NCBI GenBank assembly: GCA_947374225.1
Contig: CANCAY010000005.1
Coordinates: forward strand, 19,428 to 83,427
DNA: 64,000 nucleotides
DNA from: Chitinophagaceae bacterium
GTDB taxonomy: Bacteria > Bacteroidota > Bacteroidia > Chitinophagales > Chitinophagaceae
Reading direction: 5' to 3'
Shown here: positions 2,394 to 58,641 of the stretch, piece by piece
Position numbering within the stretch: the first letter of the stretch is position 1
How the letters are laid out: each line of letters starts with the position of its first letter
Program-made: the position numbers and the translations under genes
Notes under the pieces: model-generated
The model's database searches: none
The model's input: the letters and a program-made list of their open reading frames with translations, nothing else
Told to the model about the DNA's origin: nothing

Positions 2394-2401
2394 CAAATAT
2401 A
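2394..2401 (-). promoter_or_regulatory. -7 promoter box of ftsK
   Basis: TATATTTG on the minus strand matches the Bacteroidota -7 consensus TAnnTTTG. A TTG lies 16 bases upstream (2418-2420), a rather short spacer. Only 5 bases separate the box from the ftsK ATG, so transcription should start at or next to the start codon. Confidence 0.6.
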
Positions 2402-8049: not shown

Positions 8050-8082
8050 CAAAATTAATATACTAACTTTGATTATGCTCAA
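8050..8082 (-). promoter_or_regulatory. Promoter of the secreted amylase gene
   Basis: The minus strand carries TTG (8080-8082), a 22-base spacer and TAATTTTG (8050-8057), matching TTG-N20-TAnnTTTG within the usual spread. The leader to ATG 8028 is roughly 15 bases. It lies back to back with the plus-strand box at 8064-8071. Confidence 0.5.
8064..8071 (+). promoter_or_regulatory. -7 promoter box of lipoprotein gene
   Basis: TAACTTTG is an exact TAnnTTTG match that ends 3 bases before the ATG at 8075, implying a leaderless transcript. No convincing TTG box was found upstream. Confidence 0.45.
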
Positions 8083-20602: not shown

Positions 20603-20633
20603 AAGGTCCCGTTTTATACGGGACTTTTTTTTT
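20603..20633 (+). terminator. Terminator of the histone-like gene
   Basis: GTCCCGT pairs with ACGGGAC around a 5-base loop and is followed by nine T residues. A smaller hairpin (ATTATCC/GGATAAT, 20582-20597) directly overlaps the stop codon upstream. The T-run contains the -33 TTG used by the following polX promoter. Confidence 0.88.
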
Positions 20634-20661
20634 GCCCCTACTATACTGAAGTTTATATTTA
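20632..20661 (+). promoter_or_regulatory. Promoter of polX, predicted leaderless transcript
   Basis: TTG (20632-20634), 19-base spacer, TATATTTA (20654-20661, one mismatch to TAnnTTTG). The ATG is only 3 bases further on, so the mRNA should start at or in the start codon. The TTG sits at the end of the upstream terminator. Confidence 0.6.
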
Positions 20662-20664
20662 CAT

Positions 20665-22353
20665 ATGCATAATTACGAGATAGCCGAATACTTTACATTA
20701 CTAAGTAAGTTAATGGACATACATGGAGAGAATCCATTCAAGGTGAAATCCTATGCCAGCGCGGCTTTCACGTTAGACAAACTATCAGAGCCCGTTGTTA
20801 ATTTAGAACCTGCGCAGTTATACGCTATTCGTGGAATTGGAGAAGCAATTGGAAAAAAAATTCTTGCTATTATAAGTACTAAACATTTAGACTTATTAGA
20901 CGAGTATATTAAAAATACGCCTCCTGGAATTTTAGAAATGATTAAGATAAAAGGATTAGGTCCTAAAAAAATCACCACCATTTGGAAAGAATTAGAAATA
21001 GAAAGTGTTGGTGAATTATTATATGCTTGTAATGAAAACAGATTAATAAATTACAAAGGCTTCGGTGCAAAAACACAACAGAATATTCAAGAGGCTTTAG
21101 AATATTATTTACAACATCAAGGTAATTTTTTATACCAAGAAGTAGAACCAATTGTTGCTTCTTTAACTTTAGCACTTACTCAAAACTTTGAAAAAGAAAC
21201 ACATTTAATTGCTGGCGGATTTGCCCGACAAATGGAAACTTTAGACTTTTTGGACATTATTACTACCCTTTCTCAAAATAATTTAAGGACTTGGCTGGAG
21301 GAAAAATCATTTATTTGTGCCCCAGTAGGAAACTATTTAAGCTGCAAAGGATCCGATAATTTTGAACTACGATGGCATACTTGTAGTAAAACCGAGCTGG
21401 TTTTTACCGCATTTAAGTTGAATTGCTCCCCTGAATTTTGGTCAGCTATTGAAAATCTGCCAAATTATAATCAAACTGAGTTTGAAACTACCCCATTTGA
21501 CAATGAAATAGCCTTATTTGAAAAACTAGGCATCAGTTATATACCTGCACCACAAAGAGAGACAGCTGCTATTGTAAACAAAGCAATTTCAAAACAACCT
21601 ATTGCTAAAACAATTCAAACATCCGATATAAAAGGAATTATTCATAGTCATAGTACCTGGAGTGACGGTATTCATTCCATTGAACAAATGGCTTTGGCAG
21701 CCATTGAAAAAGGTTTTGAATATTTAGTAATAAGCGATCACTCTAAATCGGCCTTCTATGCAAATGGTTTACAAATAGATCGCATCAGAAACCAGCATAA
21801 GGAAATTGACGCGCTCAATAAAAAGCTAGCACCATTTGTGATTTTTAAAAGTATTGAATCAGATATTTTAAATGACGGTAGTTTAGATTACGCAGACGAA
21901 GTCTTAGAAACATTTGATATTGTAATTGCTTCCGTACATTCTAATTTAAAAATGAGTGAAGAAAAAGCAATGATGCGTTTATTAAATGCTGTGAGTAACC
22001 CATACACAAGTATTTTAGGGCACCCTACAGGCCGTTTATTGTTAAGCCGAAAAGGATATCCAGTGGATCACGAAAAGTTAATAGAAGCCTGCGTAGTACA
22101 TAATGTGGTATTAGAATTAAATGCGCATCCTAGAAGATTGGATATGGACTGGAGATATATTGAATCTGCCATTGAAAAGGACGTATTAATTTCCATTAAT
22201 CCGGACGCCCATGAAGTGGATGGATTTGATGATTGTAAGTACGGAGTTTTAGTCGCACAAAAAGCTGGATGTCGTGCCAGCCAGAACCTAAGTAGCTTTA
22301 GTTTACAAGAAATGATGGAGTTTGTAGCGTTTCAACAGGAAAAGAGAAATTAA
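20665..22353 (+). CDS. polX: PolX-type protein with HhH and PHP domains, degenerate polymerase site
   Basis: A 562-aa family X protein: helix-hairpin-helix region at about residues 45-130, nucleotidyltransferase core at about 150-290, and a PHP domain at about 320-555. The PHP metal site looks complete: HSHSTWSDG (His327, His329), SIESDIL, SVHSNL, GHPTGR and NPDAHEVDG. This suggests a working 3'-5' exonuclease or AP-endonuclease. In contrast the polymerase signature, normally AGS-RR----ET--DxD, reads AGGFARQMETLDFLD: the first catalytic Asp position is Phe195, and the third Asp position reads FELR (Glu234). Polymerase activity is therefore doubtful. Its family placement is secure; the repair role is inferred. 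Confidence 0.9.
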   Translation: MHNYEIAEYFTLLSKLMDIHGENPFKVKSYASAAFTLDKLSEPVVNLEPAQLYAIRGIGEAIGKKILAIISTKHLDLLDEYIKNTPPGILEMIKIKGLGPKKITTIWKELEIESVGELLYACNENRLINYKGFGAKTQQNIQEALEYYLQHQGNFLYQEVEPIVASLTLALTQNFEKETHLIAGGFARQMETLDFLDIITTLSQNNLRTWLEEKSFICAPVGNYLSCKGSDNFELRWHTCSKTELVFTAFKLNCSPEFWSAIENLPNYNQTEFETTPFDNEIALFEKLGISYIPAPQRETAAIVNKAISKQPIAKTIQTSDIKGIIHSHSTWSDGIHSIEQMALAAIEKGFEYLVISDHSKSAFYANGLQIDRIRNQHKEIDALNKKLAPFVIFKSIESDILNDGSLDYADEVLETFDIVIASVHSNLKMSEEKAMMRLLNAVSNPYTSILGHPTGRLLLSRKGYPVDHEKLIEACVVHNVVLELNAHPRRLDMDWRYIESAIEKDVLISINPDAHEVDGFDDCKYGVLVAQKAGCRASQNLSSFSLQEMMEFVAFQQEKRN

Positions 22354-53992: not shown

Positions 53993-53995
53993 GTT

Positions 53996-54025
53996 TTGTA
54001 CGTATTAAAATAAATTGTAAATTAG
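53996..54025 (+). promoter_or_regulatory. Promoter of the carboxylate-amine ligase gene, leaderless
   Basis: TTG (53996-53998), 19-base spacer, TAAATTAG (54018-54025, one mismatch). The ATG at 54029 is 3 bases downstream, so the transcript would begin at the start codon. It starts 4 bases after the preceding terminator. Confidence 0.55.
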
Positions 54026-58595: not shown

Positions 58596-58598
58596 ACG

Positions 58599-58606
58599 CA
58601 AAAGTA
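58599..58606 (-). promoter_or_regulatory. -7 promoter box of the SpoU methyltransferase gene
   Basis: TACTTTTG on the minus strand, an exact TAnnTTTG match, ends 3 bases before ATG 58595: a leaderless start is predicted. Confidence 0.5.
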
Positions 58607-58627
58607 CGGTTTTTATGAAAAATTATG

Positions 58628-58635
58628 TAGGTTTG
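58628..58635 (+). promoter_or_regulatory. -7 promoter box of mutS
   Basis: TAGGTTTG, an exact TAnnTTTG match, ends 6 bases before ATG 58642. It supports the later start of mutS over ATG 58615 and implies a leaderless or near-leaderless mRNA. Confidence 0.5.
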
Positions 58636-58641
58636 TCTGCC

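What the first reader, a model, noticed from the sequence alone, without database searches (positions are those of the whole stretch)
20632..20667. Recurrent -7 boxes 3-6 bases before ATG predict leaderless mRNAs
Six genes have a TAnnTTTG-like box ending 3-6 bases before a well-supported start: ftsK (2394-2401, ATG 2388), the lipoprotein (8064-8071, ATG 8075), polX (20654-20661, ATG 20665), the GCS2 ligase (54018-54025, ATG 54029), the SpoU enzyme (58599-58606, ATG 58595) and mutS (58628-58635, ATG 58642). Bacteroidota transcription starts a few bases after this box, so these transcripts should lack a 5' leader. Bacteroidota are known for weak Shine-Dalgarno use; a large leaderless class would be a distinct initiation route, here enriched in DNA maintenance genes (ftsK, polX, mutS).
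Basis: partly seen in the sequence, partly recalled or inferred. Interest (0 to 1): 0.6.

Follow-up and report, generated by a model that had tools for sequence, protein, structure and literature searches.

The report
Leaderless-mRNA promoters in a Bacteroidota genome
In this Sediminibacterium-like genome a small but sharply defined set of genes (about 4-7%), among them several RNA-modification and DNA-repair genes, has its promoter placed so that the mRNA should begin at or within a base or two of the start codon; such mRNAs are already known as a minority class in this phylum, so the new part is the precision, gene choice and conservation.

Summary
The boxes are present as described. TAnnTTTG-to-start distance has a one-base peak: 7, 34, 7, 3 genes at 3, 4, 5, 6 nt (51 genes, 3.9%; permuted motifs average 3.4). 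A trough follows at 7-14, then the ordinary leadered mode at 15-25. Mapped Bacteroidota promoters start 4-5 nt after this box, so the peak means +1 at the A of AUG. The peak recurs in other Bacteroidota and is absent from non-Bacteroidota loci. It favours genes heading transcription units, and its boxes share the fine sequence preferences of leadered promoters. The six genes sit on the shoulders (5, 3, 3, 3, 3, 6), not the mode. SpoU, mutS and polX have ortholog support, GCS2 is weak, ftsK and the lipoprotein rest mainly on this genome. "Large class" and "distinct route" are overstated: published leaderless or short-leader fractions in Bacteroidota are about 4-13%. The DNA-maintenance bias alone is not significant (4/51 vs 0/50); RNA-modification genes are over-represented (10/51 vs 1/50, exploratory). 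No 5' ends are mapped here; leaderlessness is inferred from promoter geometry.

The parts
2394..2401 (-). TATATTTG box, 5 nt before ftsK ATG (2388, minus strand); predicted leader about 1 nt
   Evidence: no close ortholog available; one distant ortholog (L053) has its box 14 nt upstream
8064..8071 (+). TAACTTTG box, 3 nt before the lipoprotein ATG (8075)
   Evidence: start rests on the lipobox N-terminus MLKKILFYIIAPLLVLSC, since the coding-only caller chose a later GTG; a 31%-identical protein in G017 (L174) has TAACTTCG about 4 nt upstream
20631..20634 (+). TTTG, candidate -33 element of polX, 19 nt upstream of the -7 box
   Evidence: sequence; TTTTG at a similar place in several genus orthologs
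20654..20661 (+). TATATTTA -7-like box, 3 nt before polX ATG
   Evidence: a box 3-5 nt upstream in most Sediminibacterium orthologs (TATATTTG, TATCTTTA, TAACTTTG; degenerate in three); in three orthologs (L122, L126, L127) a TATCTTTA lies 15-16 nt upstream instead
20665..22353 (+). polX coding sequence; start supported by codon-position bias of substitutions (10/10/65) in codons 2-11
54018..54025 (+). TAAATTAG, weak -7-like box 3 nt before the GCS2/YbdK-type ligase ATG (54029); TTTG at 53995-53998 is 19 nt upstream
   Evidence: genus orthologs show a degenerate TAnTTTnA about 5-6 nt before ATG
58599..58606 (-). TACTTTTG box, 3 nt before SpoU/TrmH-family methyltransferase ATG (58595, minus strand)
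   Evidence: box kept in 11 of 11 genus orthologs, 3-5 nt from ATG; TATTTTTG or TAATTTTG at 3 nt in L043 and L044
58628..58635 (+). TAGGTTTG box, 6 nt before mutS ATG (58642)
   Evidence: TATGTAGGTTTGT kept in 12 of 12 genus orthologs at 5-6 nt; TATATTTG/TATCTTTG at 4-6 nt in Cytophagales and a Prolixibacteraceae mutS
58596..58641 (.). 46-bp shared divergent promoter between SpoU and mutS, both predicted (near-)leaderless

Best explanation
The boxes are ordinary -7 elements of the Bacteroidota housekeeping sigma factor, placed so that RNA polymerase starts at, or within 1-2 bases of, the A of the start codon. The mRNAs are therefore leaderless or nearly so and are presumably translated by the general leaderless route, in which the ribosome recognises a 5'-terminal AUG with initiator tRNA. 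They form a discrete minority class (about 4-7% of genes here). It is separated from the ordinary leadered class by a zone of avoided spacings: boxes 7-14 nt before the start, i.e. leaders of about 3-10 nt. Shown here: box positions, the single-base peak, transcription-unit context, promoter-like fine sequence, and conservation for some genes. Taken from the literature: box-to-start spacing of 4-5 nt. Inferred: the actual 5' ends and the mode of translation.
For: Peak of 34 genes at exactly 4 nt (7 at 3, 7 at 5, 3 at 6) against 0.8 for permuted motifs, trough at 7-14 (18 genes over 8 spacings), main mode 15-25 with 109 genes. The same 4-nt peak appears in a second genome of the same GTDB genus, two other families and mixed Bacteroidota loci, and not in 476 non-Bacteroidota genes. 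Whole-genome pattern counts at spacing 4 over spacing 10: 2.06 in this genome, 2.08 in its family, 1.76 in its class (21 of 21 genomes). The boxes at 3-6 nt favour genes with a divergent upstream neighbour (26/440) or a same-strand gap of at least 25 bp (19/540) over tight operon genes (6/317). They share promoter fine structure with leadered boxes: G at the second n in 2%/2% against 20% inside genes, and C or T after the box in 80%/80% against 37%. Published box position is -12 to -5, or 4-5 nt before the start (PMC9723704; PMC6847099). Ortholog conservation for mutS, SpoU and polX; rlmN has such a box in 14 of 30 genomes from nearly as many families.
Against: No 5' ends are mapped in this organism. 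The six genes sit at 3, 5 and 6 nt rather than at the mode; at 3 nt a start 4 nt after the box would fall on the U of AUG, so the polymerase must start one base earlier. polX and GCS2 boxes carry a mismatch, and the mutS box has a G rarely seen in this genome's promoters. The -33 TTG is not enriched in this class (3/51 against 8% by chance), although it is also weak in F. johnsoniae. Additional upstream promoters or read-through could supply leadered mRNA as well.
Confidence: 0.86

Rival explanations
1. The boxes are real promoters but the called start codons are wrong; translation starts at a later codon, so the mRNAs have ordinary 15-30 nt leaders.
For: Start calling is imperfect: the coding-only caller chose other starts for the lipoprotein and mutS.
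Against: Substitutions right after the ATG are concentrated at third codon positions in mutS (10/11/39) and polX (10/10/65) across genus orthologs, so these codons are translated. Wrong starts would not give a one-base-wide peak.
Confidence: 0.06
2. The boxes work, but each gene also has a further upstream promoter or is co-transcribed, so the leaderless form is only part of the product.
For: 6 of 51 are same-strand with a gap under 25 bp, so co-transcription is possible there; promoters further upstream were not examined.
Against: Only 1 of 51 genes has a second consensus box 15-40 nt upstream; most have a divergent or distant upstream neighbour.
Confidence: 0.2
3. The motif before ATG is a translation signal of the Kozak-like kind rather than a promoter.
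For: Bacteroidota do use bases upstream of the start codon for initiation (PMC6847099).
Against: The motif is depleted in front of operon-internal genes, has the same fine preferences as boxes 15-40 nt upstream, and leadered genes show A-rich positions near -12 to -10 instead.
Confidence: 0.03
4. Chance matches in AT-rich upstream DNA.
For: With one mismatch about 2 of 9 window cases are expected by chance, so GCS2 or another single weak case may be chance.
Against: 34 against 0.8 expected at 4 nt; conservation of mutS and SpoU boxes in 11-12 orthologs.
Confidence: 0.02

Closest known systems
Leaderless mRNAs of Bacteroidota transcriptome maps (F. psychrophilum 5.5%, PMC9723704; B. thetaiotaomicron 3.7% of 5' UTRs under 10 nt, PMC7366714; F. 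johnsoniae 13% of leaders not longer than 10 nt, PMC6847099)
   Same: Same -7 box, same spacing of box to transcription start, similar minority fraction.
   Different: Those rest on mapped or RNA-seq-predicted 5' ends; here the class is inferred from sequence in Chitinophagaceae. The one-base peak, the 7-14 trough and the per-gene conservation were not in the passages I read.
TA-led (leaderless) genes of Zheng et al. 2011 (PMC3160421)
   Same: Promoter box about 10-12 nt before the start taken as sign of leaderlessness; information storage and processing genes, RNA processing and modification above all, have relatively more leaderless genes.
   Different: Their signal is TANNNT of sigma-70 type; they list Bacteroidetes among clades with many 'atypical' signals. 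They found translation (COG J) genes less often leaderless.
Sigma-ABfr promoters (-33 TTTG / -7 TAnnTTTG)
   Same: Same -7 consensus; avoidance of G inside the box, as in F. johnsoniae (here clear at the second n).
   Different: -33 element not enriched in the class examined here.
Actinobacterial leaderless genes
   Same: Promoter fixed relative to AUG.
   Different: There more than 20% of genes (PMC3160421); here about 4-7%.

Membership tests
Bacteroidota sigma-A (sigma-ABfr) -7 promoter element | TAnnTTTG, G avoided in nn | tested here: met
   Class-wide: G at second n 2% against 20% in genes. Single cases: mutS has GG, polX and GCS2 one mismatch.
Bacteroidota sigma-A (sigma-ABfr) -7 promoter element | -33 TTTG at about 19 nt | tested here: inconclusive
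   polX and GCS2 have TTTG exactly 19 nt upstream; class not enriched (3/51).
Leaderless mRNA | Promoter geometry that puts +1 at or within a few bases of AUG | tested here: met
   Peak at 4 nt plus published spacing of 4-5 nt.
Leaderless mRNA | Mapped primary 5' end at AUG | not testable with these tools
   No RNA data.
Leaderless mRNA | Translation by direct recognition of the 5'-terminal AUG | not testable with these tools
   Needs biochemistry or ribosome profiling.
Leaderless mRNA | The named ATG is the true start | tested here: met
   mutS and polX by codon-position bias; the other four rest on annotation and N-termini only.
Leaderless mRNA | Class concentrated in genes that need their own promoter | tested here: met
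   26/440 divergent, 19/540 gap of 25 bp or more, 6/317 tight operon.

The most novel reading that the evidence does not exclude
In Bacteroidota leaderless status is a discrete, selected, gene-specific trait that has lasted across families for certain RNA-modification and DNA-repair genes (rlmN, SpoU/TrmH, mutS). Leaders of roughly 3-10 nt are avoided, and genes such as polX switch between the two modes without intermediates. The class may respond as a set when ribosome or initiation-factor state changes.
Probability: 0.25. Interest if true: 0.6.

Novelty: new member of a known kind. Interest (0 to 1): 0.42.

Why it matters
Bacteroidota lack Shine-Dalgarno sites, so how their ribosomes find starts is an active question. 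The sharp two-mode distance histogram separates genes that should use 5'-terminal AUG initiation from genes that use A-rich leaders. It gives a named, partly conserved gene list (mutS, SpoU, rlmN, polX) with apparent natural leaderless-to-leadered switches, on which that question can be tested directly. It also helps start annotation: an ATG 4 nt after TAnnTTTG is a strong start cue in this phylum.

Tried and rejected
A test for loss of the Kozak-like A near the start in leaderless genes was inconclusive in this genus (A at -3: 14/42 against 55/130, p=0.37) and only suggestive in other Bacteroidota. The -33 TTG test showed no enrichment. tgt has a leaderless-type box in two genomes of the window's GTDB genus but only in 2-3 of 30 across the class, where it is usually leadered, so not every member is conserved. 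uvrB: 4 of 30, plus 6 relaxed. A first ortholog script ignored strand and was redone (replaced). Close orthologs of ftsK and of the lipoprotein were not obtained.

Full report
WHERE IT IS. The window is part of a 2.46 Mb draft genome (G000, contig C5). Its closest mutS relatives (79-83% identity) come from MAGs labelled Sediminibacterium, Chitinophagaceae, Chitinophaga or Bacteroidetes, so it is most likely a Chitinophagaceae genome of the Bacteroidota. 'Genus orthologs' below means these close relatives and the genomes marked 'same genus'.

OBSERVATION. Four are exact TAnnTTTG, two have one mismatch. Spacings to ATG are 5 (ftsK), 3 (lipoprotein), 3 (polX), 3 (GCS2), 3 (SpoU) and 6 (mutS). Over 50 window starts, exact boxes at 3-6 nt number 4 against 0.14 for permuted motifs; with one mismatch 9 against 1.9.

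I called genes in 1.63 Mb of the same genome with a caller that uses coding score and start codon type but no upstream signal (1,297 genes). The distance from box end to start is two-peaked: 0 at 0-2 nt; 7, 34, 7, 3 at 3, 4, 5, 6; 18 over 7-14; 109 over 15-25. Fourteen permuted motifs give 3.4 on average for 3-6 nt (max 7) and 0.8 for exactly 4 nt. With one mismatch allowed the 4-nt bin holds 83 against 17.5. The excess corresponds to about 4% (exact) to 7% (one mismatch) of genes. Exact boxes at 3-6 nt are 51 of about 265 lying within 60 nt of a start, i.e. about one in five.

BREADTH. The 4-nt peak also appears in G017 (placed in the same GTDB genus), G044, G038 and mixed Bacteroidota loci, and not in 476 genes of non-Bacteroidota loci. 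In whole genomes, counts at spacing 4 exceed spacing 10 in 21 of 21 sampled genomes of the class outside the window's order (ratio 1.76) and by 2.08 in the family; elsewhere in the phylum the ratio is 1.29 over the 25 genomes I tallied. Those 25 are only part of the roughly 90 listed; they were hand-picked, leaving out mostly genomes with very low counts, so that last ratio is indicative only.

WHY PROMOTERS. The class is concentrated in genes that need their own promoter: 26/440 with divergent upstream neighbour, 19/540 with same-strand gap of at least 25 bp, 6/317 in tight operons. Its boxes share with boxes of leadered genes the near absence of G at the second n (2% and 2%, against 20% inside genes) and a C or T after the box (80% and 80%, against 37%). 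Mapped Bacteroidota promoters have this box at -12 to -5, or 4-5 nt before the start (PMC9723704; PMC6847099). A box 4 nt before ATG therefore puts +1 on the A of AUG. At 3 nt the polymerase must start one base early, on the same purine; at 5-6 nt a leader of 1-2 nt is expected.

THE SIX GENES. SpoU and mutS are divergent, with 46 bp between their ATGs. Both boxes are kept in 11 and 12 genus orthologs respectively, at 3-5 and 5-6 nt. Cytophagales mutS and SpoU, and a Prolixibacteraceae mutS, also carry boxes 3-6 nt upstream. polX has a box at 3-5 nt in most of 17 genus orthologs (degenerate in three); in three (L122, L126, L127) TATCTTTA sits 15-16 nt upstream, so the gene appears to switch between the two modes with no intermediates seen. 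Codon-position bias right after the ATG confirms the mutS and polX starts. GCS2 is weak: its orthologs carry a degenerate TAnTTTnA about 5-6 nt upstream. ftsK and the lipoprotein have good boxes but little ortholog evidence; the lipobox supports the lipoprotein start.

FUNCTION. Of 51 class members, NCBIfam best hits place 10 among RNA modification or processing enzymes (RlmB, SpoU/TrmH family, Tgt, RsmA, TsaE, RlmN, MnmE, TrmB, RlmK/L-like, CCA transferase; three of these below the curated cut-off) and 4 in DNA maintenance (RadA, UvrB, HolA, FtsK) (one member was not scanned). Among 50 random leadered genes I find 1 (DusB) and 0; 40 of these 50 were scanned and 10 were judged from their sequences. 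Assignment to the two categories is mine. RNA: p=0.008; DNA: p=0.12; together p=0.0004, or 0.0008 without the two window genes. The RNA category was chosen after seeing the list, so its p-values are exploratory. Zheng et al. 2011 reported the same leaning in other bacteria (PMC3160421). Across 30 genomes of the class, rlmN has an exact box at 4-6 nt in 14, tgt in 2, uvrB in 4; permuted motifs give 0.3 or less on average.

VERDICT. The scale is modest and agrees with published Bacteroidota maps (3.7-13%), so it is a known kind. New in detail, as far as the papers I could read show, are the one-base peak, the avoided 7-14 nt zone and the long conservation for particular genes. 5' ends and the mode of translation remain unmeasured here.

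Noticed in passing
G000 C3:147746/147798 and C7:5501/5540; window 58595/58642: Three divergent gene pairs in 1.63 Mb have both ATGs 3-6 nt behind a TAnnTTTG, with only 38-51 bp between the ATGs: back-to-back leaderless promoters.
   Followed up: partly
window 58624-58636: The mutS promoter TATGTAGGTTTGT has G at both n positions, rare in this genome's boxes (second-n G about 2%), yet is nearly identical in 12 genus orthologs; it may carry an extra function.
   Followed up: no
L122, L126, L127 (polX orthologs): TATCTTTA lies 15-16 nt before ATG instead of 3-5 nt: apparent natural switches between leaderless and leadered modes.
   Followed up: partly
L233-L262 (rlmN loci across the class): rlmN has an exact TAnnTTTG 4-6 nt before its start in 14 of 30 genomes from nearly as many families.
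   Followed up: yes
G000 genome-wide: Boxes 7-14 nt before starts are scarce (18 over 8 spacings, against 109 over 11 at 15-25), implying avoidance of leaders of about 3-10 nt.
   Followed up: partly
G000 leadered genes: Genes with a box 15-40 nt upstream show T at -1 in 65% and A-rich positions near -12 to -10.
   Followed up: no
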